The position numbers and the translations under genes were made by a program. Below, in pieces: positions 674-28,726 of a stretch of DNA of 29,069 nt. The notes below the pieces were generated by a model. That model was not told the origin of the DNA and did no database searches. It saw only the letters and a list, made by a program, of their open reading frames with translations. Source of the DNA: a virus. Every line of letters begins with the position of its first letter. Position 1 is the stretch's first letter. Location: IMG/VR virus record IMGVR_UViG_3300048921_000584, positions 1 to 29,069 of that record; one strand, given 5' to 3'.

Positions 674-1630
674 ATGCAGATCGACTTCAACGACGCGGCC
701 TCGGTCGGCGCCTTCCTCAGTTCGCAGATGCTGCGGATCAACACCGAGATCGACAGGCAGGTTTATCCCAGCTTCGACTATTCGCGGCTGCTGTTCGTCG
801 ACACCGACGGCGGCATGTGGTCGCGCGGGTCGGTGTTCTATTCGGGCGATTTCGCCGGCAAGCCGGAGTGGATGAACGGCGCCGGCTTCGACATGCCCTA
901 TGCCGATGTCTCGACCACCCAGTTCGTCCAGGAAAACCACCTAAAGGGCATCGGCTACGAATGGTACCGGGCCGAGCTGGAGCAGGCGGCGCTGGTCGGC
1001 CGCGATCTCGCCGCCGACAAGGCGGAGGCGGCGCATACCGTTGCCGAGGCGAATATCTATGCGATGGTGATCCGCGGCGACCCCGCCAAGATCGGCGCGG
1101 CCAACATCACCACCGGCCTGATCAACAACGCCGCCGTGCAGACGACCACCGTGCCGGCAAACGGTACGGGAGCGTCGACATTGTGGTCGACCAAGACGCC
1201 CGACGACGTCATCGCCGACGTCAATGCCGCCCTCAATGCGCCATACAACGGATCTGGCGAGACCCTGCGCGCCAACACCCTGCTGCTGCCGACGAGCCGG
1301 CTGCAGGCCCTGGCCACCCGGCGGGTCGGCGACGGCAGCGATACCGTCCTGAAATTCGTCAAGGACACCAACGCCTATACGCTCGAGACCGGCCTGCCGC
1401 TGACGATCATCGGCACGCGTGAGCTGGAGACGGCGGGCGCCGGCAGCAGCGCGCGGATGATGGCCTACGACAACAGCAAGAACGTGCTGCGCGCCTATCT
1501 GCCCGGCCCCCACCAGTTCTTCGAGCCGTGGCGCAAGGGGTCGTTCACCTGGGAGGTGCCGGGCCTGTTCAACTATGGCGGGGTCGAGTTTCGCCGGCCG
1601 CGCGGCGCCGTCTACTATGACGGGATCTGA
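674..1630 (+). CDS. Major capsid protein (DUF2184-type)
   Basis: 318 residues starting MQIDFNDAASVGAFLSSQML, with AAGGAG 10 bases upstream of the ATG. The reading frame stays open far upstream (to about base 77), but that stretch overlaps the cement gene in another frame and has no coding character, so 674 is the supported start. Family features in order: an N-terminal segment with YPSFDYSRLLFVDT; a region around residue 95 with WYRAELEQAA; a helix with KAEAAHTVAE leading to a Gly-rich segment and GLINN near residue 150; LLLPTSRL near 200; ARMMAYD near 262; and the closing GGVEFRRPRGAVYYDGI. This order matches the DUF2184/encapsulin-like HK97-fold capsid proteins. The product forms the capsid shell. 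Confidence 0.88.
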   Translation: MQIDFNDAASVGAFLSSQMLRINTEIDRQVYPSFDYSRLLFVDTDGGMWSRGSVFYSGDFAGKPEWMNGAGFDMPYADVSTTQFVQENHLKGIGYEWYRAELEQAALVGRDLAADKAEAAHTVAEANIYAMVIRGDPAKIGAANITTGLINNAAVQTTTVPANGTGASTLWSTKTPDDVIADVNAALNAPYNGSGETLRANTLLLPTSRLQALATRRVGDGSDTVLKFVKDTNAYTLETGLPLTIIGTRELETAGAGSSARMMAYDNSKNVLRAYLPGPHQFFEPWRKGSFTWEVPGLFNYGGVEFRRPRGAVYYDGI

Positions 1631-1634
1631 GGCG

Positions 1635-1829
1635 ATGGTGCGGATCCGCAACCTCACCGAGGGGCCGAAGGGCGTCCACACCCGTGACGACGGCCTCGTC
1701 TTCATCGCCGGCGGCGAGGCTGCCGATCTGGATCTGTCCGAGGGCGAACGGGCCGCGGCCGGCGCCACCGGCTGGTTCGAGATCGAGCCCGCGCGCGCTG
1801 CCGCGTCCGACCCGCGAAAGGACCGCTGA
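1635..1829 (+). CDS. Small conserved phage protein after the capsid gene
   Basis: 64 residues from ATG 1635, four bases after the capsid stop, with GAGG overlapping that stop as ribosome binding site. The sequence opens MVRIRNLTEGPKGVHTRDDG and contains a beta-rich segment with LDLSEGERAAA and GWFEIEP, ending in a charged tail. Small proteins of this kind often sit between the capsid and connector genes and may help form the head-tail joint, but no function is established from the sequence. A longer in-frame start at 1575 would lie inside the capsid gene and is not preferred. Confidence 0.6.
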   Translation: MVRIRNLTEGPKGVHTRDDGLVFIAGGEAADLDLSEGERAAAGATGWFEIEPARAAASDPRKDR

Positions 1830-1830
1830 G

Positions 1831-2088
1831 ATGTCGCGCGAGATCGACCGGCTGGGGGATACCAGCGCGCTTGGCAATGCGTGTATCGAATACACGCCGG
1901 CCGATGCCGACCTGCCGGAGGGCGTCAAGGCGGTGCATTTCGATGCCGACGGCACGATCGCCTTCAAGAATGACGCGGGCGGTGCCGCGGTCACCGGCTA
2001 TCCCGTGGCCAGGGGCGTGCCGCTGCTGTTCGTGCCGCGGCGGATCACCGCGATGAGCGGCGTCACCAAATGCTATCTGGTGCTGTGA
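1831..2088 (+). CDS. Small virion protein resembling a spike-base domain
   Basis: 85 residues from ATG 1831, one base after the previous stop, with GAAAGGA upstream. The order of short motifs (YTPADADLPEG, a VHFDADGTIAF beta hairpin, VTGYPVARGVPLLFVPRRI, and a final TKCYLVL strand) looks like the short beta domain in proteins named spike base protein, RCAP_Rcc01079 family, where a G-x-L-P-x-R-x-R-x-I segment closes the fold. This is a pattern match by eye. The position between the capsid gene and the DUF4054 connector suggests a capsid-associated protein or a fibre base on the head. Confidence 0.55.
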   Translation: MSREIDRLGDTSALGNACIEYTPADADLPEGVKAVHFDADGTIAFKNDAGGAAVTGYPVARGVPLLFVPRRITAMSGVTKCYLVL

Positions 2089-2089
2089 C

Positions 2090-2494
2090 ATGGCTTATGC
2101 GCGCCCGGACCCGGCGGCGCTGAAGCTGCGCTACGCCGCCTTCGGCGCGGTCGACGACGACCGCGTGCAGTACTGGCTGGACGATGCCGTGCGCGGCGTC
2201 GACGAGAGCTGGATCGAGGCCGATTTCGCGCCGGCGTTGATCGCGCTTGCCGCGCACAACATGGCGCTGGCCGGGCTTGCCGCGGACGCCACCGCGATCC
2301 CGCAGGGGGTCAGCGCGATCACCACCGGCGCGTTCTCGGCGACGCTTGCCGAGGCGGCCGTCCGTCAGCAGATCGACGGCGGCCTCGCCGCGACCCGCTA
2401 TGGCCAGGACTATGCCGCGCTGCTTCGCCGCAACTGCGGCGGGCCACTGGTGACGCGCGCGGGTTCGGTCACCTCGGCGGTGTGCGGCCGATGA
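2090..2494 (+). CDS. Head-tail connector protein (DUF4054-like)
   Basis: 134 residues starting one base after the previous stop. It matches the DUF4054 connector layout: an N-terminal FGAVDDDRVQYWLDDA helix, a W-x-E motif (DESWIEADF), the LAAHNMAL helix near residues 55-65, a Gly/Ser segment, and TRYGQDYAALLRRN close to the C terminus. These all-helical proteins form the ring docked under the portal. The gene ends in an ATGA overlap with the next one, so the two are probably translationally coupled. The neighbouring head-closure and tail-terminator candidates support the call. Confidence 0.75.
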   Translation: MAYARPDPAALKLRYAAFGAVDDDRVQYWLDDAVRGVDESWIEADFAPALIALAAHNMALAGLAADATAIPQGVSAITTGAFSATLAEAAVRQQIDGGLAATRYGQDYAALLRRNCGGPLVTRAGSVTSAVCGR

Positions 2495-2862
2495 CGATCG
2501 CGAGATTCTTCGCCGACATCGCAATCGGCCTGTCGGCGGCGCTCGGCGGGCCGTTCCATGCCGCCCAGGTCATCGACCAGGCAGGCGGCGGCTATACCGA
2601 GGGCGGATCGACCCGGGCCGGCTATCCGCTGTTCCGCGATTGCCGGGCGCAGGTCGACATCGTCACCGATGGGATGCGCGGCGATGGCGTCGCCGACGGC
2701 ACGGCGCAGGTGCTGATCCTTGCCGCAAGTCTCGACGGTGATCTGGATGGCGATGCCCGGCTGCGGCTGCTCGCCGGGCCGAATCGCGGCGACTGGTTGC
2801 TGAGCGCGGTCACCCGCGATCCGGCCGGCGCCTACTGGCAGGGGAGCGCACGGCGTGGCTAG
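2491..2862 (+). CDS. Probable head-closure protein (unrecognised family)
   Basis: 123 residues from ATG 2491, which overlaps the previous stop as ATGA. An in-frame GTG at 2482 is possible but less likely. The N terminus is a hydrophobic helix (FFADIAIGLSAALGG), followed by a beta-rich part with DCRAQVDIVTDGMR and a closing GDWLLSAVTRDPAGAYW strand pair. I recognise no named family. The position between a DUF4054 connector and an HK97-gp10-like protein is where siphoviruses place the head-closure/stopper protein (SPP1 gp16 or HK97 gp9 type). The role is inferred from that order. Confidence 0.55.
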   Translation: MTIARFFADIAIGLSAALGGPFHAAQVIDQAGGGYTEGGSTRAGYPLFRDCRAQVDIVTDGMRGDGVADGTAQVLILAASLDGDLDGDARLRLLAGPNRGDWLLSAVTRDPAGAYWQGSARRG

Positions 2863-3232
2863 GCTGACCGGGGTCGAGGCACAGATCGCGCGGCTGCGCC
2901 GGCTGGCCGGGCCGGGGTTGACGGGGGAAGTCGGCGCGGCCCTGCTCAAGGGCGGCGAAGCGGTGAAGACCGCCGCGCAGCAGGCGCTCGCCGGGGGCGG
3001 ACGCCATGACGATGCGCTGGCCGCCAGCATCACCGTCACCGCCAATGGCCCGCTGACCGTCACGGTTGCGGCAACCGCGCCCTGGGCGGCGGCGGTCGAG
3101 TTCGGGACCAGCCAAGCGGGCGAGCGCCCGTTCCTCCGGCCGGCGGCCGCACGGGCGCGGGGCAGCGTGGTCGCCGCCTGCCGCGCGGCGGTCGGCCGCG
3201 CGATCGGTGGCGGGGGCCGTGGCAATGGCTAG
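2855..3232 (+). CDS. HK97-gp10-like neck/tail completion protein
   Basis: 125 residues from GTG 2855, overlapping the previous gene by 8 bases. The hallmark is near residues 75-98: a V-E-F-G-T motif followed by ERPFLRPA, which defines the HK97 gp10 family (PF04883). A helical N-terminal part (VEAQIARLRRLAGPGL) precedes a SITVTANGPLTVTVAA hairpin. Proteins of this family act at the head-tail joint or in tail completion. The C terminus is Ala/Arg-rich and ends in GGGGRGNG. Confidence 0.8.
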   Translation: MARLTGVEAQIARLRRLAGPGLTGEVGAALLKGGEAVKTAAQQALAGGGRHDDALAASITVTANGPLTVTVAATAPWAAAVEFGTSQAGERPFLRPAAARARGSVVAACRAAVGRAIGGGGRGNG

Positions 3233-3665
3233 GCCCGGCACGCTCGCGATGCGTCAGGCGCTGGTCGCGCGACTGAAGACGGCGGGCAACCTCACCGTGC
3301 TGGTGCCGTCCGCATCGATCCACCGCCAGGCCTCTCCGGCGCGCGCGGCCTGGCCGTTCGTCCGCACCGGCGCGCCGATCGCGGTGCCGCTCACCGGCGC
3401 CTGCCTCGACGGCAAGGACTTCACCATCGCCGTCCACGGCTTCAGCAAGGGCCGCTTTGCCGCCGACAGCGAACTGGAATGCGCCGAGGATCACGCGATG
3501 CGGATCGGCGACGAGATTGCGGTGGCGCTCGACCATGTGAAGATCGACCTGGCCGGCATCGGCGCGATGCGGGTGCGCTGGACGGGCGGGCAGACGATGC
3601 CCGACGGCGCCGAGGCCGGTGCCTTCCACACCGTGCAGAACTTTCGCGTGCGGGTGCTCTCGTGA
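3225..3665 (+). CDS. Tail terminator protein (DUF3168-like)
   Basis: 146 residues from ATG 3225, overlapping the previous gene by 8 bases. A longer in-frame start at 3066 would lie within the previous gene. Family features: an N-terminal MRQALVARLKTAGNL helix, a VLVPSASIHRQ segment, the WPFVRTG strand, and FTIAVHGFSKG followed by a helix. This matches the DUF3168 tail-completion family (lambda gpU / HK97 gp10-neighbour type). The protein caps the growing tail tube and joins it to the head. It ends the head-neck block; an 82-base gap follows. Confidence 0.7.
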   Translation: MARPGTLAMRQALVARLKTAGNLTVLVPSASIHRQASPARAAWPFVRTGAPIAVPLTGACLDGKDFTIAVHGFSKGRFAADSELECAEDHAMRIGDEIAVALDHVKIDLAGIGAMRVRWTGGQTMPDGAEAGAFHTVQNFRVRVLS

Positions 3666-3678
3666 CGCCGCGCCGCGC

Positions 3679-3695
3679 CTGACGGCCCTAAACCG
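3679..3695 (+). repeat. 17-bp repeat, copy 1, upstream of the tail tube gene
   Basis: CTGACGGCCCTAAACCG occurs here and again exactly at 11454-11470, with similar flanking bases (GCGCCG upstream, CAC downstream). This copy lies in the longest gap of the head-tail block, 53 bases before the tail tube start codon. No other copy was seen. A late-gene control site is one possibility, but no convincing -35/-10 pair is visible. Confidence 0.55.
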
Positions 3696-3747
3696 CACTG
3701 CCCGGCCGTCGCTAGCCTGCGCCAGTCATCCGATCGGAGTGCCCTGA

Positions 3748-4203
3748 ATGTCCGAGCCCACGACTTTCGAATTCGCGGTTATCCGCTATCGCCCGCTCGG
3801 TTCGTCCGGCGCCTACACCACCCTCTGCGGGATCCAGACCAGCGGCCTCAACCGCACGGTGCAGAGCGACGACCGCTTCATCGGCGATTGCGCGAAGCCG
3901 GGGAAGATTCCGGCGCGCCGCGTGCGCGTCACCGGGCGGCAGTGGGACGTTTCGGGGTCGGGCCTGGCCGATGTCGACATCGCGCTCAGCACCTTCGACG
4001 ACCTGCTCGGCGTGCGTGCCGACTACCAGTACATCCTGATGGACATCGCCGACCCGGCGACCGAGGAGGGGACCGAGATCGGCACCTATGCCGGCACCGG
4101 CGTGCTCACCAGCGCCAACCTGTCGAACACCGAACGTAGCGACACCACGGTCGAGATCGCCATCGCCTCGCACGGCGACTGGGCGTACACCCCGGCGGCC
4201 TGA
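3748..4203 (+). CDS. Major tail tube protein
   Basis: 151 residues starting MSEPTTFEFAVIRYRPLG, with GGAGT at 3736-3740. The sequence is beta-rich throughout, with a mid-protein KIPARRVRVTGRQWDVSGSG segment, a LSTFDDLLGVRADYQYILM stretch and a late GTGVLTSANLSNTERSDT strand pair, as in lambda gpV-like tube proteins. It sits directly before the chaperone pair and the tape measure, the canonical place for the tube gene. The product polymerises into the hollow tail shaft around the tape measure. Confidence 0.82.
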   Translation: MSEPTTFEFAVIRYRPLGSSGAYTTLCGIQTSGLNRTVQSDDRFIGDCAKPGKIPARRVRVTGRQWDVSGSGLADVDIALSTFDDLLGVRADYQYILMDIADPATEEGTEIGTYAGTGVLTSANLSNTERSDTTVEIAIASHGDWAYTPAA

Positions 4204-4709
4204 TGCCCGCGACCGAAATCGAGCTGAAGGTCGCGGACGGGGATTACCTCTTCGCGCTGCGCCTGCCGCAGCTCGCCGCGCTCCAGGATGCGCGCAAGGC
4301 GGGGATCTTCGCGATCTACGCCCGTGTCCTCAAGGGCCGCTACCTGTTCGGCGACCAGCCGATCGAAAACGTGCTGGAGGCCGAGGCCTTTGCCGAGGAC
4401 ATCTACGAGACCATCCGCCTCGGCCTGATCGGTGGTGGCAAGGGGACGGTGGACGGCGCCGCGGTCGAGGTCAGCGCGTTGAAAGCGCGGGCGATCATGG
4501 AGCAGTACATCCACCCGGCACCCTTGCGCGAGGCCTGGGCGATCGCGGCCGCAGTGCTTGGCGCCAAGATCGAAGGATACGACCCCGGCCCAAAAGCGGA
4601 GCCGGCGGTCGCGCCGGCAAGATCCAGAAAACGCGGATCCCGGAGGGCTTCGACCCCGAGCGCGCCATCGTCGACTGCGCCGGCATCGGACTCGACTGGG
4701 AACGGCTGA
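4203..4709 (+). CDS. Tail assembly chaperone, short form (gpG-like, GTA-gp10 family)
   Basis: 168 residues; the ATG follows directly on the tube stop (TGATG). The N-terminal part has LKVADGDYLFALRLPQLAAL and the IRLGLIGGGKG motif near residues 76-86, both typical of the GTA gp10 / Phage_TAC_11 tail chaperones. The folded domain ends around residue 130. After that the in-frame C terminus turns low-complexity and Arg/Ser/Pro-rich, as expected where a second frame normally takes over. It is the zero-frame product of a frameshifting pair and chaperones the tape measure during tail assembly. It is not part of the finished virion in known systems. Confidence 0.8.
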   Translation: MPATEIELKVADGDYLFALRLPQLAALQDARKAGIFAIYARVLKGRYLFGDQPIENVLEAEAFAEDIYETIRLGLIGGGKGTVDGAAVEVSALKARAIMEQYIHPAPLREAWAIAAAVLGAKIEGYDPGPKAEPAVAPARSRKRGSRRASTPSAPSSTAPASDSTGNG

Positions 4710-4831
4710 CCTGGTGGCAGTACCAGGCCGCCGTCTCCGCCCATAACGACGATTTGAGCGGCGGCGACCTCGCCCCGCCACTCGACACGGGAAAGGCGCG
4801 CGCCGCGATGGCCGCGGTGAAGGTGCAGTAA
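4203..4831 (+). CDS. Tail assembly chaperone, frameshifted long form (gpGT-like)
   Basis: A -1 shift at C CCA AAA (4589-4595) joins the first 131 codons of the short form to 78 codons of the -1 frame, read from 4595 to the TAA at 4829-4831, giving 209 residues. The second-frame part is not random: it reads KIQKTRIPEGFDPERAIVD and then GLDWERLTWWQYQAAVSAHN, resembling the T-domain segment that binds the tape measure. No start codon with a ribosome binding site precedes this part in its own frame, so a frameshift is the simplest way to make it. The stop overlaps the tape-measure ATG (TAATG). Confidence 0.8.
4589..4618 (+). promoter_or_regulatory. Programmed -1 ribosomal frameshift signal
   Basis: The heptamer CCCAAAA at 4589-4595 is read C CCA AAA in the chaperone frame, the X XXY YYZ form that lets both tRNAs slip back one base. 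Five bases later a perfect 7-bp all-GC hairpin follows: GCCGGCG at 4601-4607, loop GTCG, CGCCGGC at 4612-4618. The spacing of a stimulatory structure five to nine bases after the heptamer is the known arrangement for bacterial -1 sites. Phage lambda uses GGGAAAG at the equivalent point. Confidence 0.8.
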
Positions 4832-6630
4832 TGGCCGAAGACGCCGGCACGGTCGCGATCCAGTTCGAAGCGAAGGTCGATGCGTACAACGCCTCGATTG
4901 CCGCGACGGTGCGCGCCTTCGGTGCGGCCGGCGGCGCGATGCAGAATTCTGCCGGAGTGGTCGAGGCTGCTGCGACCCGGCTGGGCGCGGCGGCGAGCGC
5001 GGGGTTTCAGCGCGCGGGGGAGAGCGCGGAGGCTGCAGCGAAGGGCGTCGAAGGCGGTTCGATAAAATCGAGCGAGTCCTCTCGTAAATTTGCGAAAGCA
5101 CTATCTGAATTGGCGCTCGAGGCTGCCGGCAGCGACGTGAAATTCTCTTCTCTCGTTGCTAAGTTTCCACAGGTGGTGGAGGCTCTGGAAGTAACCAAGG
5201 GACCGCTTGTGGGTTTCGTCGGCTTTCTTCAGGGTCCTTGGGGTATCGCTTTAACAGGCGCTGCTGCTGTGGTATTGAAGCTCATCGAACGCATGGGTGA
5301 GTTTAGCGATAAGACAAAAGAAGCCATAAAGAAGGCAGACGAATCATTCGCTAAGATCAAGAGCCTCGTCGAACAAGCGGAGCGACTCAACTACGGTGGG
5401 ATCGACGAAGATAACTTTCGTCTTCGGATGAATGCTCAACGGAGCGTGCGAGAAGCCGAACAGGCTCTTGTAGATGCGAAATCGAAGAATGTGCCGGGCG
5501 CACGCACGCGTGGCGAAGCTACGGCTCTGCGAGGGCCGATGATTGTCAAAGCCGAAAGGAATCTGGCAGCAGCGAAGGAAACCCTCCGGATTGTCAATGA
5601 AAAACTAGAACTTTACTATAGCAAAAAAGAAGCCGAAGCAGCTCTGGAGGAGAAGAGAGAGAAATCCTCCAAGAGCTACCGTCAGTCCATTATTTCAGTC
5701 CGCGATACGCAGGCGCAGGCTGATGCTGCGGCATCTGCGGCCTTGACAGAGCGGAAGCGTGTAATCGACGAAATCAATGCGAGCTTGGTTCAGGCGGCTA
5801 AATCGTGGCAGGACATCATAGCGGGAAATGCCAATCAGGGCATCGCGAAGATCGAAAGCGATATCAACCGACCCGGTGATGAGAAGCTCAAGGCCGGGTA
5901 TCAGGCTCTCATCGACAAGGAAGCCGAAGAGAAGAAGATCAAGGCGCTGGCCGACTTCTATCTCCAGGCGTTCAACGGCGGGACGAAGGGGCTCTTCAAG
6001 CAGTTCAAGGAGGAAGGCCTGAAGGCGGTCGCGACGATCCTGGCGAAGCTGACCGTGGCGCAGTTCGGCGGCGCGGTCGGCGGGGAGGGGGGTGGCGGCG
6101 TCTTCGGCACGCTGTTCGGCGCGATCGTCTCGGCGGTGACCGGGGGGGGCTACAATGCCGCCAAGCTGCGGGCGAAGGGTCCTCCGCTGGGTTACCCCAC
6201 CGGCGGTACGTGGGAACTACCCAAGTCGGGGCCGCTCCTCAACTTCGGTGATCGCGGCCTGTCCTTCGACACGCCCCGTCTTGCGACCGGCGGATCATTC
6301 CGCGTCGGCGGCGCAGGCGGGATCGATGGCAATGTGATGGCGATCAACGGCCAGCCGGTCGCGCAGGTGTCGCGTGGCGAGACCGTCGCGGTGGTGCCGC
6401 AGGGCAAGCGGCTGGCACGGCCGGTGGGGGCGCTCGACAAGCCGCAGGGCGACATGCGCGTGTTCAATATCTCGGTCTCCGCCGACAACAGCGTGACGCC
6501 GGCCACCTTCGGGCGCGAGGTGGTGGCGATGGCACTGCAGGAGGCGGCGAAGATGGATGACGCCACCTTCCGGCGCTCCATGGCGAACGTGCCGGCGCGG
6601 GTGAATCGTTTCCAGCAACTCGGGTCCTAA
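4831..6630 (+). CDS. Tail tape measure protein
   Basis: 599 residues; the ATG overlaps the chaperone long-form stop. The N-terminal 75 residues are Ala-rich helix (AAGGAMQNSAGVVEAAATRL). A hydrophobic segment near residues 124-150 (LVGFVGFLQGPWGIALTGAAAVVL) is typical of tape measures. Residues about 160-330 are charged, Lys/Glu-rich and coiled-coil-like. The C-terminal third returns to Gly-rich sequence and ends RVNRFQQLGS. The protein sets tail length and is ejected with the DNA; at about 0.15 nm per residue, 599 residues suggests a tail near 90 nm. The middle of the gene differs sharply in base composition from its ends. An in-frame remnant of its last 17 codons lies at 6994-7047. Confidence 0.85.
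   Translation: MAEDAGTVAIQFEAKVDAYNASIAATVRAFGAAGGAMQNSAGVVEAAATRLGAAASAGFQRAGESAEAAAKGVEGGSIKSSESSRKFAKALSELALEAAGSDVKFSSLVAKFPQVVEALEVTKGPLVGFVGFLQGPWGIALTGAAAVVLKLIERMGEFSDKTKEAIKKADESFAKIKSLVEQAERLNYGGIDEDNFRLRMNAQRSVREAEQALVDAKSKNVPGARTRGEATALRGPMIVKAERNLAAAKETLRIVNEKLELYYSKKEAEAALEEKREKSSKSYRQSIISVRDTQAQADAAASAALTERKRVIDEINASLVQAAKSWQDIIAGNANQGIAKIESDINRPGDEKLKAGYQALIDKEAEEKKIKALADFYLQAFNGGTKGLFKQFKEEGLKAVATILAKLTVAQFGGAVGGEGGGGVFGTLFGAIVSAVTGGGYNAAKLRAKGPPLGYPTGGTWELPKSGPLLNFGDRGLSFDTPRLATGGSFRVGGAGGIDGNVMAINGQPVAQVSRGETVAVVPQGKRLARPVGALDKPQGDMRVFNISVSADNSVTPATFGREVVAMALQEAAKMDDATFRRSMANVPARVNRFQQLGS
5060..5850 (+). other. Low-GC mosaic segment inside the tape measure gene
   Basis: Hand counts of 60-base lines give about 55% G+C at 5101, 45% at 5281 and 38% at 5581, against 78% at 6061. 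Codon choice changes as well, with many AAA, GAA and TCT codons. The reading frame is unbroken across both edges. The edges given are approximate. Confidence 0.7.
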
Positions 6631-6672
6631 GTTGCCTTGCGTCGGCGCTTTGATCGGGCATATTTGCCGATC

Positions 6673-6945
6673 ATGATCGAATGTCGTTCAATGCTTCTGG
6701 TTCTGGCCGTGCTTGTGGCATGCAGTGAGGCTAAACGGGGACCGGATGCGGCCGAGCGCTATGCGATCTTCGCGCGGCATCCAAGTACGGCAGCAGAAAA
6801 ATGTGCCGAAGCAGCGAAAGTCGCTGAAGCTTATTTGTACGACAAGGACGAGGCCAAATACGATCACTGGCACTCGATGTCCGAGATGAACTGTCTTGTC
6901 GACCAAGCGCGGCGGCTCAACCATCGTGAAGGCATCCGACGATAG
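6673..6945 (+). CDS. Small lipoprotein, intact copy
   Basis: 90 residues from ATG 6673; an in-frame ATG at 6691 and a TTG at 6637 are alternatives. The start at 6673 is favoured because its MIECRS opening aligns with MVRCST of the paralogue at 7086. A signal peptide (MLLVLAVLVAC) ends in the lipobox LVAC, so the mature protein would be lipid-anchored at its Cys. The mature part has GPDAAERYAIFARHPSTAAEKC, then AAKVAEAYLYDKDEAKYDHW, and one later Cys. I recognise no family. Its position after the tape measure and its lower GC (about 48% in the line at 6781) mark it as an accessory gene. Superinfection exclusion is a plausible role for a phage lipoprotein, but it is inferred. Confidence 0.6.
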   Translation: MIECRSMLLVLAVLVACSEAKRGPDAAERYAIFARHPSTAAEKCAEAAKVAEAYLYDKDEAKYDHWHSMSEMNCLVDQARRLNHREGIRR

Positions 6946-6993
6946 TCACCGGCTGCGCTCGGGCTACCGTGGCGGAGAGAAGCCCCCCACCGC

Positions 6994-7047
6994 AGCATGG
7001 TCCACGTTCAAGCGTGCGCGAACCGCTTCCCGCAACTCGGGTCTTAA
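6994..7047 (+). pseudogene. Remnant of a second tape-measure 3' end
   Basis: These 54 bases read SMVHVQACANRFPQLGS-stop. The true tape measure ends SMANVPARVNRFQQLGS-stop at 6577-6630, and 11 of 17 residues are identical, including the stop position. The remnant sits the same distance before the second lipoprotein copy as the real tape-measure end sits before the first (offset about 417 bases). It has no start codon of its own. It shows that the lipoprotein duplication included the end of the preceding gene. Confidence 0.65.
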
Positions 7048-7085
7048 GCCATATTGCGCTCGCATGCGTGCGGTGCGGGGAAGCG

Positions 7086-7394
7086 ATGGTGCGTTGTTCG
7101 ACACTTCTGGCGAGAATGCTCGTTCTGCTCACCGCCTGCGGCAAGGGACCGGCGGCGGAGAAGCGCTACCAGATGGTCGCCGATGGCGGTACCGCGGCCG
7201 AAAGGTGCGTCGAGGCCGGCAAGGTCGCCGAAGCATATCTCTCGGATCGCAACGCGGACGCCTATGACTACTGGCGACTGCAGAAATAGGTGGCCTGTCT
7301 CGAGGCCGAGAACGCCCGTGCCGATTCTGGCCGTACGGATGCCGCGGCCGACGAGGCGCTGGAGGATGCGGCCGAGAACCGGACGAAGCGGTAG
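7086..7394 (+). pseudogene. Small lipoprotein, second copy, interrupted by TAG
   Basis: ATG 7086 follows GGGGAAG. The first 67 codons give MVRCSTLLARMLVLLTAC (lipobox LTAC), then a body clearly paralogous to the upstream copy: TAAERCVEAGKVAEAYLSD against TAAEKCAEAAKVAEAYLYD, and YDYW against YDHW. A TAG at 7287-7289 stops the frame. The same frame then continues 34 codons (VACLEAENARADSGRTDAAA and onward) to a TAG at 7392. Aligning on the shared Trp and Cys puts the TAG opposite a Glu of the first copy, so one base change from GAG would explain it. It may still yield a truncated 67-residue lipoprotein. Confidence 0.6.
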
Positions 7395-7418
7395 CGGCCG
7401 GACCTGCAAACGCGTGCT

Positions 7419-7901
7419 TCACTCCGCGCCGTTCGCCTGAAGCAAAAGCGCATCGTTCAGACAACAATTGTGCTCGGCCGGCAGGACGATCGAACTCGGA
7501 TCGTCGGGAATAAGGGGTTCCGGCTTTTCAAGCGGCACCTCGATGGGAGCCGGGCGGGCATCGACATGTTGTTGCTCGGTGATTGTGAAGTAGCACAACT
7601 CCTTGTCGCGGATGATCGCGCCGTAATGGTTCGAGGCGTCGTATTCGAGATAGACGATGCGCAGCCGCGCCTGCTTGGGCACCGAGATGCGTGGATCGAT
7701 GCCGGTGTAGGCGCGAAATATCGCCGCATCCAAGAGCTGGCTGTCGGAGACGTCGACCGAAATCCGCTTGTAAGACGAGGGTGACGCAAGGTTCGACAAT
7801 ATCCGCCCTTCGCAACTCGTCACTTCCGGCGAATCCGCCGGCTTCATGTCGCAACCGGCAAACGTAAGAACGATGGCTCCCGCCAGCGCGGCTTTTTGCA
7901 T
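7419..7901 (-). CDS. Lipoprotein of unknown function, opposite strand (moron)
   Basis: 160 residues read leftward from ATG 7899-7901, with GGGGGA eight bases upstream as ribosome binding site. A longer start would remove the clean signal peptide. The N terminus MQKAALAGAIVLTFAGC is a lipoprotein signal with lipobox FAGC. The mature part has TSCEGRILSNLASPSSYKR, a motif like that in other small secreted proteins (a Cys followed by L-x-S-P-S-x-Y-K-R), later ELCYF, and HNCCLNDALLL near the C terminus. Family not recognised. It is the only clear minus-strand gene in the tail operon, so it needs its own promoter and may be expressed in the lysogen. I could not find a convincing -35/-10 upstream. 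Confidence 0.7.
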   Translation of the reverse strand: MQKAALAGAIVLTFAGCDMKPADSPEVTSCEGRILSNLASPSSYKRISVDVSDSQLLDAAIFRAYTGIDPRISVPKQARLRIVYLEYDASNHYGAIIRDKELCYFTITEQQHVDARPAPIEVPLEKPEPLIPDDPSSIVLPAEHNCCLNDALLLQANGAE

Positions 7902-8011
7902 GATCAATCCCCCACTTGCCGCTCGGTTGGCGGCGTGCCGAGCCTGACGACCGGCAAGGAATAACACCCGCGACCAAGCCCGCCTATCCCGCCCCACGCC
8001 CCGGGGACCGG

Positions 8012-8611
8012 GTGACGGCCGTAATCTCCGAGGATCTCCCCGACCACGAAGCCGCCATGGGCCTGTTCCGCGAACTCTACCTCGTCCGCATCGCCTCCGA
8101 CCCGATCGCGCGGCTGCATTCGGGGTTCGGCGACCTCGTCATTCCTGCCGACAATGTCGAGGATGATCCGGCACTCTATCTGGGTGGCGGCGGGCTTATC
8201 AACCTGCCCGATTACCAACAGCTCGTGAACGGCGCCGCCGACCGGCTGGACGTCACCATTTCCGGCGTCGCGGCCGAGACGCTGGTGCTGGCCTCGACGG
8301 AGGCGGAGGCGGTCGGCGGCGCGCAGATCCATCTCGGTCGCCTCGACCTCGATGAAGATTGGCAACCGATCGCGCCGGTCGAGTGGGAGGCGGTGTTCCG
8401 CGCCGACAGCCTCAGCGTCAGCAGCACCGCGGGCGAGGTGCGCAACCGGTCGATCAAGTTGTCGATCGCCACCGCTGACACCCGCCGTGCCCGCGCGCCG
8501 AATGCCTATTTCACCGATGTCGACCAGCGCGCGAAATCGCCCGGCGACCGGATCTTCGCGTTCGTCTCGGCGATCACCCAGGGAGCCTCGCGGCGCTTTG
8601 GCCCGAAATGA
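8012..8611 (+). CDS. Minor tail / baseplate protein
   Basis: 199 residues from GTG 8012, with GGGGA just upstream. ATG 8057 (MGLFRELYLVRI) is a serious alternative and would give 184 residues. Features: LYLVRIASDPIARLHSGFGDL, a beta-rich middle with RLDVTISGV and IHLGRLDLDEDW, FRADSLSVSSTAGEVRNRSIKL, and a late YFTDVDQRAKSPGDRIFAFV segment ending RRFGPK. The late pattern (D-x-D-x-R, then PGD-x-x-F-x-F-V, then a Gly-containing end) is common in tail-tip proteins placed between the tape measure and an NlpC/P60-type protein. I cannot name the family. Position suggests a tail-tip hub component analogous to GTA gp12/gp13 or lambda L. Confidence 0.6.
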   Translation: MTAVISEDLPDHEAAMGLFRELYLVRIASDPIARLHSGFGDLVIPADNVEDDPALYLGGGGLINLPDYQQLVNGAADRLDVTISGVAAETLVLASTEAEAVGGAQIHLGRLDLDEDWQPIAPVEWEAVFRADSLSVSSTAGEVRNRSIKLSIATADTRRARAPNAYFTDVDQRAKSPGDRIFAFVSAITQGASRRFGPK

Positions 8612-12251: not shown

Positions 12252-12613
12252 TGGACAGCCTGTCGCCGATCTATCTTCCCATCGAACTCAACCGGAACGG
12301 GAGCTGGGTCCGCACGATCCTGCTCTACGATCTGTCCGGCAATCCCGTGGACGCGTCCCACTGGACCCTGGCGGGCGCGGTCAAGGCGGCGGCGGGGGTG
12401 AGCGGGGGCGCGCTGGCAACGTTCACGATCACGCCGACCCCCGGCGGCGACGGCCAGTACCTGATCGAACTCCTCGGCTCCGACCTGAACGCGGTCGACG
12501 GCGATCAGGCGATCGTTCGCCTCGCCTACGACATCCGCGCGACGCGCAACACCTATCCCCCCGAAATCCTCCTGCAGGGTCCCGTAATCCTCAACCCCGG
12601 AGTGACCGTATGA
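12251..12613 (+). CDS. Small fibre adaptor, BppU-N-like, cassette 1
   Basis: 120 residues; the ATG overlaps the previous stop (TGATGG). It is a compact beta-sandwich-like sequence: LPIELNRNGSWVRTILLYD, then GNPVDASHWTLAGAVKAA, GDGQYLIELLGSDLNAV, and LAYDIRATRNTYPPEILLQG. The order (polar opening, D-x-S/T-G, a Y-D-I strand, and a final L-x-G-x-V-x-L) resembles the N-terminal domain of BppU-type baseplate proteins that hold receptor-binding proteins on the tail. The protein at 16754 has the same layout and the same place before an esterase fibre. Its start MDSLSPI also resembles the start of the next fibre (MSSLSPI). Confidence 0.6.
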   Translation: MDSLSPIYLPIELNRNGSWVRTILLYDLSGNPVDASHWTLAGAVKAAAGVSGGALATFTITPTPGGDGQYLIELLGSDLNAVDGDQAIVRLAYDIRATRNTYPPEILLQGPVILNPGVTV

Positions 12614-15600
12614 GCAGCCTGTCACCCATCAAGATCGTGGTCACGGGTGCCCTTGCCGCGCCACTCGCCGACAAGGCGAACCTCGCCGACCTCGGCAGCC
12701 TGTCCGGCAAGGACAGCGTCGCAAGCGGCGATATCGATCCCGGCGCCGTCACCAATTCGCGCCTCGCCAGCATGGGCGAGGCAACCCTCAAGGGGCGCGC
12801 CGCCGGCAGCGGACCGGGCACGCCGGTCGATCTGAACGCTACGCAGGTGCGCGGGCTCCTCAATGTCGCGGCGGGGGCGACCGCCAATGACAGCGACGCC
12901 AATCTGAAGAGTCGCGCCAACCACACCGGCACCCAGGCGATCGCCACCGTTTCCGGCTTGCAGGCGGCGCTCGACGGCAAGGCCGCAGCGACGGTCGCGA
13001 CCAGCGCCGTAGCGGGCGTGATGTCGGCCGCCGACAAGGCCAAGCTCGACGGGATCGCGGCCGCGGCGACCGCCAACGCCACCAACGCCCAGCTTCGCGA
13101 CCGCTCGACCCATACCGGCAGCCAGGCGATCACGACCGTCGCCGGGTTGCAGGCGGCGCTCGACGGCAAGGCTCCGGCGACCGCCGCGACCAGCGCCGTA
13201 GCGGGCGTGATGTCGGCGGCCGACAAGGCCAAGCTCGACGGGATCGCGGCCGCGGCGACCGCCAACGCCACCAACGCTCAGCTTCGCGACCGCTCGACCC
13301 ATACCGGCAGCCAGGCGATCGCGACCGTCGCCGGGTTGCAGGCGGAGCTCGACGGCAAGGCTCCGGCGACCGCCGCGACCAGCGCCGTAGCGGGCATGAT
13401 GTCGGCGGCCGACAAGGCCAAGCTCGACGGGATCGCGACCGCCGCCACCGCCAATGCGACCAATGCGCAGCTTCGCGACCGTTCCACCCATACCGGCAGC
13501 CAGGCGATCGCCACCGTCACCGGGCTGGAGACGGCGCTCGAGACGAAAGCCGCCGTCACCGCCGCCGTACAGACGCAGGGCAAGCCGGGCGATGTGCTCG
13601 ACCGCTTCACCGCAACGCTGAACGGCACCGCGGCGAGCGCGGCGGCGCCCGGCGGCACACTGGTCGAGACCGACGACATGGGTGCGGCCCTGCGCCAGAC
13701 CGGCGCCTCGGTGACCGCGTTGCGGGAGCGGATCGCGGTCTGGCCGGACAGCGTCATCCGCGTCCGCGCCCGCATCCAGCGCGCGACCAACCCGACTGAT
13801 CCCGCCGGAGACACGGTGCGGTTCGCCGTGAACCGGCTCAACAAGAGCAAGGCGACGATTTCGAGCCCGACCGTCGTTCAGGACGTGACGCTCTCCGTCC
13901 AGCCCGACCCGACCGTGATCGAGGCGGTGTTCGCGGCCGGCGCGGGCGAAGGGGTGGATTTCGCCTGGACGACCACCACCCGCTACATCGTGCCCTTCGT
14001 CCAGACCTTCGGCGCGGACGGCGTCACCGATATCGGCGAGATCGCCTGGGAGGAGGTCGGCGCCGCCGCATCGCTTTCGACGGGCCTCGCCGCCGAACAG
14101 AATGCGCGGATTGCCGCGTTCAACGCGGAGCAGACCGCGCGCATCAACGCTGACAGCGCCGAACAGACCGCCCGCATCGCCGCGGTTGCGGGAGAGGCGG
14201 GCGCGCGCATGAGCGCCGACGCGGATCTTCAGGCCGATATCGACGCCAGTGTCACGGCGCTAACCGCCGCCACGACCGATGCCGCCAACGAGAAGCGGCG
14301 CACACGGCGTATCGCGCTCTCCAGCCTCGGCCAGAACGTCGAGGATGTCGAGACGCTTGCCATCCGTGGCGGCCGGCGGGCGATGGGCGTCGACCTGCAC
14401 GGCCAGCTCCTCGCGCTGGGCATCAGCACCAAATGGGGTATCGACCTTGAAGGCGAGCATCGCCTGGCGATCATCGGCGATGGCGACCGCACCTCCTTCG
14501 CGCTCAACCATGATGGTAGCGTCTTCGCCGTCCTCGACGCCGATACGCGCGCGCAACTGGGCGGCGGGATTGAAGCGATCGACGTTCCCCACGGCCTGTT
14601 CGACCGCGAGGTGTTCGGCGCGAGCGGGCTGTCGCCGCTGCTCGCCCGCGCCTGGTCCGACGAGGAGGGGCAGAGCTATTCCTACGTCTACCGCCGCGAC
14701 ATCACCGCGCAGGCGGCGATCCGCGAGGGGCGGGGGCCGATCGAGGGCTTCGTGTCGAGCGGGCAGTCGCTGCGCGTCGGCGGCGGCGCGCTCGATGCCG
14801 ACCCGCATGTTCTGACCGTCGCCCCGCTTGCCCGCCACATCAACCTGATGCTCGACGACGGGCTCCGCGGGCCGATGACCAGCGCGTGGAACCCGGCTGC
14901 CGCGAGCGACTTCGCGCCGGCAGTCGAAGCCTATGTCTCCACGCAGAATGTCGGCGAGACCGGCCTCGCCGCGACGATGCGCTATCTGTCGGTGCGGGCG
15001 GGGGCGACCGGCCGGGTGCAGGCGCCCTATGTGGCGCGCGCGGATGGCCGCGGCGGCACCATCCTCGCCGATCTCGCCAAGGGATCCGTACCCTATGCCA
15101 ATGCGCTCTCCAGTCTGCAGCGCATGGGCGAGATCGCCTGCGGAAAGTATCGCCGCCCCTTCGTGGTGCGCTGGCTACCCTTCGGCCAGGGCAATGCCGA
15201 TCGCGCCAGTCTGACCCCGCGGGCGAGCTGGGTCGCCACGCTCAAGCAGCTGGCGGAGGATTACAACGCCGACATCCTCGCTTTGCTCGACCAGTTCGCG
15301 ACCACCTGGCCGGATCTCTACGCCGATGTCGCGCTGCCGACGCGGGTTCCGCTGATCACCGCGCAGTTGACCGACGTGATCTCGTCTTCCGGCGACAGCG
15401 GCGACGACATCGTGTTCGCGCATATCGACGCCGCCGAGCAGTCGAACCTGATCTACGTCTCGCAGCCGCAATATTTCTACAAGGACGGCTACGGCTATGC
15501 CGATGCCGCGCATCTCCAGGCGCTCGGCTACGGCGTCCAGGGCGAGTACGATGCGCTCGCCTGCGAGCGGATCGTGTGGAACGGGGCGGCCGTCGGCGGG

Positions 15601-23106: not shown

Positions 23107-23583
23107 ATGACCTTCGCCGAATTCGGCCAGCACGCCGCCGCGGTCGTCCCCGCGCTCTTCGCCTCGGGCGGGATCGGCTTCGCGGTCAAGACCGTGCTCG
23201 ACCACCTCCGCGCCAAGCGCAAGGCGTCCGACGACGTGGCGATGACCCTGGTCCAGCAGCTCAACGACCGCGTCCGCACGCTCGAGGCGGCGCGCGACGG
23301 CGACCGCGCGCTCTACGACGCCAACATGGCGATCATGCGCCACCGCATGAACAACCTGAAGCAGTCCTTCGACGGGCTCCTGATGCTGATCGAGGCCGAT
23401 CCCCGCCGCGCCGGGGAGTTCGTCGCCAAGATCAAGGAGATGCGCGTCAAGCAGGAGGCCGAGGAGCTCGCCGAGAAGGCCGCCGTCCAGGCCGCGCGCC
23501 TGGCCGCGACCGGATTGGCGAGCGGCATGCCCGGTGTCGGAGCGGGCGCCGGCATCGGTGCGGGGGAGGCGGCAGCGGCATGA
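23107..23583 (+). CDS. Membrane-anchored coiled-coil protein in the lysis block
   Basis: 158 residues from ATG 23107, with GGGAGG at 23094-23099. An in-frame start at 23026 would run back into the fibre gene. Residues about 10-28 form one weak membrane helix (AAVVPALFASGGIGFAV). Residues 35-125 are charged helix with heptad character (LVQQLNDRVRTLEAARD, MRHRMNNLKQSFDGLLMLI, FVAKIKEMRVKQEAEELAEK). The tail is Gly/Ala-rich. No lipobox and no Cys. One N-terminal helix plus a periplasm-facing coiled coil would suit an inner-membrane spanin; a holin-like role is the other option. The identity is not established. The stop overlaps the lysozyme start (ATGA). Confidence 0.6.
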   Translation: MTFAEFGQHAAAVVPALFASGGIGFAVKTVLDHLRAKRKASDDVAMTLVQQLNDRVRTLEAARDGDRALYDANMAIMRHRMNNLKQSFDGLLMLIEADPRRAGEFVAKIKEMRVKQEAEELAEKAAVQAARLAATGLASGMPGVGAGAGIGAGEAAAA

Positions 23584-24236
23584 GCACCGAACAGGCCATC
23601 CAGCGCGACCTGCTGCGCCTCGGCCGGGCGATCGGCCCGGTCGATGGCGTGCTCGGCCCGCGCAGCAAGGCCGCGATCCGCGCCATCCTCGCTGCGCTGC
23701 CGACCCCGGTGCCCGTCCCGGGCACGGCCGCAGGCGGCATCGAAAGGCCCGCCGCCGTCTCGGCCGCGGGCATCGACCTCGTCCGCCGCTTCGAGGGCTG
23801 CCGCCTCGCCGCCTATCCCGATCCGGCGAGCGGCGGCGAGCCGTGGACGATCGGCTGGGGTGCGACCGGCCCGGGCATCGCGAAGGGCACGGTCTGGACC
23901 CAGGCCGAGGCCGATGCCCGCCTCGCCGCCGATCTCGCCGCGGTCGCCGCCGGCGTCGCCCGGCTGACCGCCCCCGGTGCGGCCGCTGGCGCAACCGCCG
24001 CGGCCACGAGCCAGGCGCAGTTCGATGCGCTGGTCGCCTTCGCCTATAACGTCGGGCTGGCGGCGCTCGCCGGTTCCACCCTGCTGCGCCTGCACCGCGC
24101 CGGCGACACGGCCGGCGCCGCCGCCCAGTTCGCCCGCTGGAACCGGGCGGGCGGCAAGGCGCTGGCCGGCCTCACCCTGCGCCGCGCCGCCGAGGCCGAC
24201 CTCTACCGGGGTGCCTCGCAGGAGGTGCCGCGATGA
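23580..24236 (+). CDS. Endolysin, GH24 lysozyme (muramidase)
   Basis: 218 residues; the start overlaps the previous stop. Residues 1-40 look like a short peptidoglycan-binding motif (AIQRDLLRLGRAIGPVDGVLG then KAAIRAIL). The GH24 catalytic set is clear: Glu72 in RRFEGC, Asp81 in AYPDP and Thr90 in WTIGWGAT, the E-8-D-n-T arrangement of T4/P22-type lysozymes, here with eight rather than five residues between Asp and Thr. FDALVAFAYNVGLAAL near 145-160 and the RW-x-x-x-GG-x-x-L-x-GL-x-x-R-R-x-x-E stretch at the end are also family motifs. It cleaves the MurNAc-GlcNAc bond of peptidoglycan. There is no signal peptide, so release needs a holin, and the next gene fits. Confidence 0.9.
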   Translation: MSTEQAIQRDLLRLGRAIGPVDGVLGPRSKAAIRAILAALPTPVPVPGTAAGGIERPAAVSAAGIDLVRRFEGCRLAAYPDPASGGEPWTIGWGATGPGIAKGTVWTQAEADARLAADLAAVAAGVARLTAPGAAAGATAAATSQAQFDALVAFAYNVGLAALAGSTLLRLHRAGDTAGAAAQFARWNRAGGKALAGLTLRRAAEADLYRGASQEVPR

Positions 24237-26760: not shown

Positions 26761-26836
26761 GCCTCCGCATTGATCCCCGCGCCTCTCTTGTGCTGAGACA
26801 CTTCCTCATTCCGACGGGGTAAACGTCTTGGCTACG

Positions 26837-28726
26837 ATGGCGCGCGGGGATCATCGAAAAGATATTGACGGGCTGCGCGCGGTCGCCGTGCTGCCCGTCG
26901 TGCTGTACCACGCGGGCGTCAGCTGGTTGGGCGGCGGATATACCGGCGTCGACGTCTTCTTCGTCATATCCGGCTTCCTGATCACCGGCATTCTCGCCCG
27001 CGACATCGCCAAGGCGCAGAGCGCATGGGAGGTGCTGGTCGCCTTCTACGATCGGCGGATCCGGCGCATCTTCCCGGCGCTTTTCGCCATGCTCGCGGTG
27101 CTGTTCGCCGTCGGGCTGGCGTTCTTCCTTCCGCAGGATCTGGTCGGACTCGCCCGCTCGCACCTCGCGACTCTGATCTCCGGATCCAACGTCCTTTTCT
27201 TCCGCGAATCCGGCTATTTCGATCTTCCTTCGGAGAGCAAGCCGCTGCTCCACACATGGTCGCTCGCGGTGGAGGAGCAGTTTTATCTGGGTTTTCCGGT
27301 CCTTCTTATCCTGATCGCGCGCTATAGTCCGCGCCTCCGCTCGCCGGCGATCTGGCTGATGTTCGCAGCCTCGCTGGCGCTCGCCGCGGTCGGCGCGTTT
27401 CGGGCGCCATCGTTCACCTTCTATCTCCCGGCCACGCGGATGTGGGAGTTGCTCGCCGGCTCGATCGTCGCGCTGGCGATGGTGCCGCCCATCCGCGGGC
27501 AGGCTGCGCGGGAGGCCGCCGCCGGTCTCGGTGTGGCCGCGGTGCTGGCGCCGATGTTCGTGTTGACCAGCAAGACGCCGTTCCCCGGCCTCGCTGCACT
27601 GCCAACGGTGCTCGGCACGGCGCTGCTGCTCCATAGTGGCGAGGGCACAGTTGTGGGCCGCGCACTGAGCGCCCGCGTTCCGGTTGCGATCGGCCTGATC
27701 TCCTATTCGCTGTACCTTTGGCACTGGCCGATCATCGTCGCCGGCAAGTACCTGCTGGTCGAGGCGCCGGAGGGGCTGTGGTGGCTCGCCTTCGTGCTGG
27801 CCGCTTCGATCGCCGCCGCCTGGCTGTCCTGGCGCTTCGTCGAGCGGCCGTTCCGTCGACCCGGCTGGCGTCTGCGCACCACCTATGCGCTGGCGGCCGT
27901 CGGGATGGTCGTCATGGCGGTGCCGGCCGTGGTCGTCATCGCAACCGACGGCCTGCCGCAGCGCATGACGCCGGCCGTCCTTGCCCGCGTTGCCGCTGCC
28001 AGGGACTTCAGCCCGATGCGGCGGCAGTGTCATTTCGAGGAGGGCAGCGCGAAGCCGATCGCCGCGAGCTGCGTGTTCGGCGCGCCGGTGCCGCCGGCGA
28101 TGGCGATATGGGGCGACAGCCATGCCGTCGAATTGTCTTACGCAATGGGCGAGGTCGCGAAGGCCGAGGGCAGGGCAGTGCGCGAGATCTCCTATTCCGC
28201 TTGCCCGCCGGTGACCGGCACGGCGTTGTTCACCCGCGCCTGCCGAGCCCACAATCAGGCGGTGCTCGACTATCTGGTTGCCGATCGCACGACCCGGACG
28301 GTGGTGCTGATCGCCTTCTACGGGTCGGAGTTCATCACCGATCGCGCCGACTTCGCCGCCAGCCTGCGCCGCTCCGTCGAGCGACTGCGCGCCGCCGGGA
28401 AGACTGTGGTTCTGGTCGACCCGATGCCGTTGCCGCGCATGAACGTGCCGAGCGGTCTCGCCCGCTACGCCGCGCGCGGGGTGGAGGATGAGCGGTTGAA
28501 CATCACCTGGGCGAGCTACCGGCGAACCTACGGCTGGGTGTTCGCGATGCTCGATGGCCTAGCCGGTCCCGGCGTCGTGCGCGTCCATCCGGCCGAGCGG
28601 CTGTGCCGCGGCGATCGCTGCTTCGTCGAGGGGCCGGAGGGGGTTTATTATTTCGACGGCCACCATCTCAGCATGACCGGCGCGCGGCGGGTGGCCCCTC
28701 TTTTTCGAGATCTGATCTCTCGCTAG
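26837..28726 (+). CDS. O-acyltransferase (acyltransferase 3 with C-terminal SGNH domain), OafA/OafB-like
   Basis: 629 residues from ATG 26837; TTG 26828 has a better-spaced GGGG and would add three residues. Residues 1-360 are the AT3 membrane part, with about ten helices and the family motifs DIDGLRAVAVLPVVLYHAG, YTGVDVFFVISGFLITG, RRIRRIFPALF, HTWSLAVEEQFYLGFP and SYSLYLWHWPI. After one more helix (about 360-380), a periplasmic SGNH domain follows, with IWGDSHAVEL (Ser428) and FDGHHLSMTGA (Asp607/His610). Fused AT3-SGNH proteins O-acetylate O-antigen or other surface glycan in Salmonella-type seroconversion. As a moron at the end of the late operon it is a strong lysogenic-conversion candidate. 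Its substrate sugar is unknown. Confidence 0.85.
   Translation: MARGDHRKDIDGLRAVAVLPVVLYHAGVSWLGGGYTGVDVFFVISGFLITGILARDIAKAQSAWEVLVAFYDRRIRRIFPALFAMLAVLFAVGLAFFLPQDLVGLARSHLATLISGSNVLFFRESGYFDLPSESKPLLHTWSLAVEEQFYLGFPVLLILIARYSPRLRSPAIWLMFAASLALAAVGAFRAPSFTFYLPATRMWELLAGSIVALAMVPPIRGQAAREAAAGLGVAAVLAPMFVLTSKTPFPGLAALPTVLGTALLLHSGEGTVVGRALSARVPVAIGLISYSLYLWHWPIIVAGKYLLVEAPEGLWWLAFVLAASIAAAWLSWRFVERPFRRPGWRLRTTYALAAVGMVVMAVPAVVVIATDGLPQRMTPAVLARVAAARDFSPMRRQCHFEEGSAKPIAASCVFGAPVPPAMAIWGDSHAVELSYAMGEVAKAEGRAVREISYSACPPVTGTALFTRACRAHNQAVLDYLVADRTTRTVVLIAFYGSEFITDRADFAASLRRSVERLRAAGKTVVLVDPMPLPRMNVPSGLARYAARGVEDERLNITWASYRRTYGWVFAMLDGLAGPGVVRVHPAERLCRGDRCFVEGPEGVYYFDGHHLSMTGARRVAPLFRDLISR

What the first reader, a model, noticed from the sequence alone, without database searches (positions are those of the whole stretch)
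6561..7394. Tandem duplication carrying a tape-measure tail and a lipoprotein gene
The last 17 codons of the tape measure reappear at 6994-7047 (11 of 17 residues identical, same stop), followed by a second copy of the small lipoprotein at the same spacing. The offset is about 417 bases. The second lipoprotein has an in-frame TAG opposite a Glu of the first copy, with clear homology continuing beyond it. The region looks like an insertion point for accessory genes just after the tape measure.
Basis: seen in the sequence. Interest (0 to 1): 0.6.

Follow-up and report, generated by a model that had tools for sequence, protein, structure and literature searches.

The report
Doubled phage lipoprotein beside tape-measure gene
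A bacterial virus carries two anciently diverged copies of a small membrane-anchored protein gene, one of them broken, just after the gene that sets its tail length; relatives of this uncharacterised protein turn up beside tail-length genes and defence genes in related bacteria, which suggests, but does not prove, that it shields infected cells from rival viruses.

Summary
The last 18 codons of the tape measure gene (6574-6630) recur at 6991-7047 (74% nt, offset 417), and each copy is followed by a homologous small lipoprotein gene (lp1 6673-6945, lp2 7086-7394; in-frame TAG at 7287-7289). A second contig confirms the arrangement to 7280 but stops short of the TAG. It is not a recent tandem duplication: lp1 is 55-56% identical (nt) to lp2 and to the single lp of a near-identical phage (L008), while lp2 and L008 are 73% identical to each other. 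L008 has one copy, itself frameshifted; more distant relatives have none. So this is a moron (accessory-gene) site where diverged alleles were stacked or swapped, leaving a tape-measure scar; lp2 is probably decaying. New here: lp belongs to an undescribed three-cysteine, three-helix lipoprotein family, found in about 2-3% of sampled Sphingomonadales genomes. In prophages it recurs next to tape measure genes (twice between chaperone and tape measure with a terminator-like hairpin, as HK97 gp15), once after a CI-type repressor, and elsewhere beside Dsr1 or type I restriction genes. Best reading: a superinfection-exclusion lipoprotein. Function is inferred, not shown. Known kind, new sequence family.

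The parts
4831..6630 (+). tape measure protein gene (599 aa), intact; its last 18 codons are repeat copy 1
   Evidence: PHROG 7025 tape measure E=0.001; homologous to L045/L015/L013 tape measures; precedes tail genes; tail chaperone GTA-gp10-like Phage_TAC_11 at 4203
6574..6630 (+). functional tape-measure 3' end, repeat copy 1
   Evidence: 84% identical to L008's tape-measure end
6631..6672 (+). spacer 1, with hairpin-like inverted repeat GATCGGGCAtatttGCCGATC ending at the lp1 start codon
   Evidence: sequence; local fold, not significant against shuffles
6673..6945 (+). lp1: intact 90-aa lipoprotein, lipobox LVAC (Cys17), conserved Cys44 and Cys74, three-helix model
6946..6990 (+). junction between lp1 and the scar; homology to the tape-measure end becomes detectable about 6971
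   Evidence: alignment
6991..7047 (+). non-functional scar of the tape-measure 3' end, repeat copy 2, keeping the TAA stop
7048..7085 (+). spacer 2 (38 nt), similar to the spacer of L008
7086..7394 (+). lp2: second lipoprotein gene, in-frame TAG at 7287-7289 cuts it to 67 aa and removes most of helix 3 and the third conserved Cys; probable pseudogene
7419..7901 (-). lp3: unrelated 160-aa lipoprotein (MQKAALAGAIVLTFAGC), convergent with lp2; also present in L008
8057..8611 (+). next tail gene; in L012/L013 its homologue directly abuts or overlaps the tape-measure stop, marking the empty site

Best explanation
This is a moron site between the tape measure gene and the next tail gene of a siphophage or prophage, probably of a Sphingomonadales host. 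Two anciently diverged alleles of one small lipoprotein gene stand in tandem. Recombination (old unequal exchange, or joining of two alleles at the tape-measure 3' end) left a 57-nt tape-measure scar in front of the second. lp1 is intact; lp2 is probably decaying through the TAG, as the single allele of L008 is through a frameshift. Proposed working: the lipoprotein is made in the lysogen, is lipid-anchored, and its periplasmic or surface three-helix domain, held by a Cys44-Cys74 disulfide, excludes superinfecting phages, most likely by blocking the injection conduit in which the tape measure takes part. Shown: architecture, homology, divergence order, family, context, confident fold model. 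Inferred: lysogenic expression, membrane location, disulfide, exclusion, tape-measure target.
For: Repeat and lp homology; second contig; near-identical phage with one diverged allele and otherwise 98-100% identity, with differences clustered between about 6367 and 7380, i.e. a swapped patch; empty sites; lp1+lp2+L008 as one group with support 78/85, not conclusive. Family of 16 with three invariant Cys (56) and core pLDDT 97-98. Contexts: between tail chaperone and tape measure with a terminator-like hairpin before the tape measure in L073 and L074, antisense just 5' of the tape measure in L044, in the tail operon of L045, directly after a CI-like repressor in L046, beside TerL in L043, beside type I RM in L047 and Dsr1 in L075. 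HK97 gp15, a known exclusion moron, sits between chaperone and tape measure with a terminator; gp15 and Ltp exclusion maps to the tape measure (PMC10883804); lipoproteins in the structural gene cluster of mEpimmI coliphages exclude phages when expressed (PMC11893012).
Against: No promoter, and no terminator above chance level, was found around lp1/lp2 in the window. No sequence relation to Ltp, gp15 or Cor beyond one weak PHROG Cor match in one member (E=0.003, probably lipobox-driven). Several members are chromosomal without visible phage genes (L028-L030, L032). Tape-measure adjacency rests on few independent events (about 0.015 by a rough binomial that leaves the window out and assumes 50 gaps per phage).
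Confidence: 0.5

Rival explanations
1. Old tandem duplication within this phage lineage, with later loss of one copy in L008 by allele swap; lp1 and lp2 simply drifted apart. (This rivals only the historical part of the best explanation.)
For: Tandem arrangement with tape-measure end, similar spacer and lp in the same order; lp1, lp2 and L008 group together at 78/85.
Against: G+C and GC3 of lp1 (55%, 57%) and lp2 (65%, 77%) differ though both sit in one genome of 69% G+C; copy 2's tape-measure scar is still 74% identical while the lps are 56%.
Confidence: 0.35
2. The lipoproteins act in virion assembly or entry of the phage itself (for example a tail accessory or release protein), not in exclusion.
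For: Location inside the late tail operon, on the same strand.
Against: Absent from relatives with the same tail genes; broken in L008 and one copy broken here; homologues on host chromosomes and in defence loci; terminator-like hairpins after lp in L073/L074.
Confidence: 0.15
3. Spanin-like lysis lipoprotein.
For: Small lipoprotein; weak NCBIfam spanin2 matches in two members.
Against: The lysozyme gene lies 16 kb away at 23580-24236; chromosomal homologues without lysis genes; weak matches look lipobox-driven.
Confidence: 0.04
4. A host lipoprotein picked up by phages as neutral cargo, with an envelope housekeeping role.
For: Chromosomal versions L028-L030 and L032, without visible phage genes nearby.
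Against: Recurrent placement beside tape measure, CI repressor and defence genes.
Confidence: 0.2
5. The TAG at 7287 is a sequencing or assembly error and lp2 is intact. (This rivals only the pseudogene part.)
For: Only one record covers it; L007 stops at 7280.
Against: L008's allele of the same gene is also broken, by a one-base deletion outside a homopolymer, so decay at this locus is plausible.
Confidence: 0.2

Closest known systems
HK97 gp15 moron (superinfection exclusion)
   Same: Extra gene next to the tape measure in a tail operon; L073/L074 members sit exactly where gp15 sits, between tail chaperone and tape measure, with a terminator-like hairpin before the tape measure.
   Different: gp15 is predicted to be an inner membrane protein (PMC10883804), lp is a lipoprotein; the window's copies lie on the 3' side of the tape measure; the two were not compared by sequence here.
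TP-J34 Ltp superinfection-exclusion lipoprotein
   Same: Small lipid-anchored prophage protein; one lp member (L046) directly follows a CI-like repressor, like a lysogeny-module gene; Ltp escape maps to the tape measure (PMC10883804, PMC3952083).
   Different: Ltp is from a phage of a Gram-positive host; no sequence or fold match to it was found here.
mEpimmI coliphage Lpp exclusion lipoproteins and Cor
   Same: Short lipoproteins encoded in the structural gene cluster, several sequence types per phage group, exclusion shown on expression (PMC11893012).
   Different: Enterobacterial, no clear sequence relation as far as tested (one weak Cor-profile match in one member); thought to act on receptors or on DNA ejection.

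Membership tests
phage moron | extra gene between two genes that are adjacent in relatives | tested here: met
   empty site in L012, L013 and L035
phage moron | base composition unlike the flanking late genes | tested here: met
   lp1 55% G+C, GC3 57%; tape measure GC3 71%, next tail gene 84%. lp2 (65%, GC3 77%) does not stand out.
phage moron | own promoter and terminator | tested here: inconclusive
   none above chance in the window; terminator-like hairpins after lp in relatives L073 and L074
Ltp-type superinfection-exclusion lipoprotein | lipobox and lipid-anchored small protein | tested here: met
   LVAC / LTAC lipoboxes and an invariant Cys; anchoring itself not testable here
Ltp-type superinfection-exclusion lipoprotein | sequence or fold relation to Ltp | tested here: inconclusive
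   no PDB sequence hit, no significant fold hit
Ltp-type superinfection-exclusion lipoprotein | blocks injection; escape maps to the tape measure | not testable with these tools
   needs plating assays and escape mutants
HK97 gp15 moron | located between tail chaperone and tape measure | tested here: not met
   window copies lie 3' of the tape measure; relatives L073 and L074 do meet it
Cor exclusion lipoprotein | match to the Cor family profile | tested here: inconclusive
   one of 13 members matches phrog_1119 at E=0.003; lp1 has no PHROG match
spanin | encoded in the lysis cassette | tested here: not met
   lysozyme at 23580-24236, 16 kb away
recent tandem duplication | copies closer to each other than either is to the allele of a sister phage | tested here: not met
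   lp1-lp2 55.9%, lp2-L008 72.8%

The most novel reading that the evidence does not exclude
The lipoprotein family is a new, so far unnamed superinfection-exclusion system of Sphingomonadales phages that acts on incoming tape measure proteins. The lp gene and the 3' end of the tape measure gene are exchanged as one allelic block (the patch swapped between the window phage and L008 spans both), and a copied tape-measure end serves as the homology anchor by which further lipoprotein cassettes can be stacked.
Probability: 0.2. Interest if true: 0.65.

Novelty: new member of a known kind. Interest (0 to 1): 0.42.

Why it matters
If the exclusion reading is right, it adds a recognisable lipoprotein family, with an easy sequence signature (lipobox plus two Cys) and a location cue (beside the tape measure), to the few exclusion proteins thought to act at DNA injection, in a bacterial order for which I came across no such report (not searched exhaustively). 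The window also catches a moron site in the act: zero, one and two copies, a gene scar at the junction and decaying alleles, in phages that are otherwise nearly identical.

Tried and rejected
Recent duplication: rejected on three-way divergence. Assembly chimera: unlikely given contig L007. Known families: no significant Pfam, NCBIfam, PHROG or PADLOC family for the lps (weak lipobox-type matches only). Phage and plasmid record collections: no relatives of the lp members tried, L057 against phages and L032 against plasmids and phages, and no nucleotide relatives of the region among phages. Fold search: best hits are TPR-like helical hairpins at Z of about 7, within the range of common helical arrangements, so not used; no entry of a phage exclusion protein appeared. 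Promoter scan of the window region: nothing; terminator-like sites at chance level there. No RNA family in 6400-8100 and no tRNA in the window, so no suppressor tRNA for the TAG. I translated the lps in a wrong frame; that protein part is void and was redone. In one search lp3 was also translated in a wrong frame, so its protein identities are not used.

Full report
1. What is there. The window is a 29,069-base virus record with a major capsid protein, HK97-gp10-like tail component, GTA-gp10-type tail chaperone, tape measure, tail genes, phage lysozyme and an acyltransferase. After the tape measure stop (6630) comes a 90-aa lipoprotein gene lp1 (6673-6945), then a copy of the last 18 codons of the tape measure including the stop (6991-7047), then a second lipoprotein gene lp2 (7086-7394) interrupted by a TAG at 7287-7289, then an unrelated lipoprotein gene lp3 on the other strand (7419-7901), then the next tail gene (8057-8611). 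The repeat is 58 nt at 74% identity, spacing 417. The local alignment of the two halves scores 127, against a maximum of 42 in shuffles and 54 elsewhere in the window. lp1 and lp2 score 148 against a maximum of 53 in 1000 shuffles.

2. Is it an artefact. Contig L007, from another IMG/VR record, is 99.97% identical over window positions 831-7280 and carries the same doubled structure. It ends seven bases before the TAG, so the TAG rests on one record. L008, from a third record, is 98-100% identical in its flanks, but its tape measure runs straight into a single lipoprotein gene. That gene reads in two frames, with one base fewer than lp2 outside any homopolymer, so it also looks broken.

3. History. 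Differences between the window and L008 are few in the first 500 codons of the tape measure, then cluster from about 6367 to about 7380 and nearly vanish again; codons 532-542 hold eight of the eleven amino acid changes. A patch covering the end of the tape measure and the lipoprotein locus has therefore been exchanged. Within it lp1 is 55.9% identical to lp2 and 55.0% to the L008 allele, while lp2 and L008 are 72.8% identical (these figures are for the whole repeat unit, tape-measure end included); for the tape measure end alone, copy 1 and L008 are 84% identical and copy 2 is 74% from both. lp1 has 55% G+C and GC3 of 57%, lp2 65% and 77%. A recent duplication is excluded. An old duplication, or joining of two alleles at the tape-measure end, remains possible; the tree puts lp1, lp2 and L008 together with support 78/85, which is not decisive. 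More distant phages (L012, L013) and prophages (L015/L033, L035) have no lipoprotein here, and in L012 and L013 the homologue of the next tail gene directly abuts or overlaps the tape measure stop. The place is an optional-gene site.

4. The protein family. A profile of the three alleles found 11 of 397 genomes of the family of Rhizorhabdus (the host of L015); a wider profile found 8 of 396 genomes of the order, partly the same genomes, and 1 of 381 of the class. Sixteen members share the lipobox Cys and two more invariant Cys. No member has a significant match in Pfam, NCBIfam, PHROGs or PADLOC beyond weak lipobox-like hits. AlphaFold2 gives three helices with pLDDT of 97-98 in the core of lp1, helix 2 carrying Cys44 and helix 3 Cys74. 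The TAG in lp2 removes most of helix 3 and the third Cys, so the truncated product is unlikely to fold as lp1 does (inference).

5. Contexts. L073 and L074: lp lies between the tail chaperone region and the tape measure, and a hairpin followed by a T-rich run stands between lp and the tape measure in both. These tape measures are identified by PHROGs (L073) and by homology (L074). That the genes just before lp there are the chaperone is inferred from gene order; L073:5930-6349 had no PHROG match. L044: lp is antisense immediately 5' of a 2018-aa tape measure. L045: lp lies in the tail operon, upstream of the tail tube-like gene, again beside a second, unrelated antisense lipoprotein. L046: lp directly follows a CI-like repressor gene. 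L043: lp faces a terminase large subunit gene. L047 and L075: lp neighbours type I restriction genes and Dsr1. Others are chromosomal, for example L028-L030 and L032. With the window left out, two of five independent phage-borne placements touch the tape measure; with an assumed 50 gaps per phage that has probability of about 0.015, a rough figure.

6. Mechanism. In HK97 the exclusion moron gp15 stands between a tail protein made by -1 frameshift (the chaperone) and the tape measure, with a putative terminator, and exclusion by gp15 and by the lipoprotein Ltp depends on tail genes that include the tape measure of the incoming phage (PMC10883804). Lipoproteins in the structural gene cluster of mEpimmI coliphages exclude phages when expressed (PMC11893012). 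Position, anchoring, small size, composition, optional presence and neighbours of the lp family fit this kind of gene. I therefore propose a superinfection-exclusion lipoprotein, with the tape measure as the likeliest target. Neither exclusion nor the target has been shown, and no promoter was found in the window.

7. Verdict. Real, largely ordinary phage mosaicism at a moron site, with a more interesting by-product: an undescribed lipoprotein family with a recurrent place beside tape measure genes.

Noticed in passing
window 7419-7901 (-): Third lipoprotein gene (MQKAALAGAIVLTFAGCDMK...), antisense in the tail operon; also present in L008. Asp at +2 could mean inner membrane retention by the E. 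coli rule.
   Followed up: partly
L045:7387-7698: In another prophage the lp homologue is again paired with an unrelated antisense lipoprotein gene inside the tail operon.
   Followed up: partly
window 26828-28726 (+): Acyltransferase-3 fused to an SGNH domain after the lysis region: a candidate surface O-acetylation (lysogenic conversion) gene.
   Followed up: no
window 28761-29069 (-): C-terminal part of a DDE transposase at the window's end, which suggests a prophage or an insertion at the edge of the record.
   Followed up: no
window 6652-6672: Hairpin-like inverted repeat GATCGGGCAtatttGCCGATC ending right at the lp1 start codon; operator, start-site occlusion or chance.
   Followed up: partly
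window 12610-13500: Tail fibre-like protein with several near-identical repeats (TANATNAQLRDRSTHTGSQAI...).
   Followed up: no
L026, L078: The two-Cys helical domain also occurs without a lipobox, after a transmembrane-like segment (L026) or behind a zinc-ribbon membrane protein (L078).
   Followed up: no
L075:6831-11943, L047: lp homologues lie next to Dsr1 and next to a type I restriction locus with a PDC-S11 gene: possible defence islands.
   Followed up: partly
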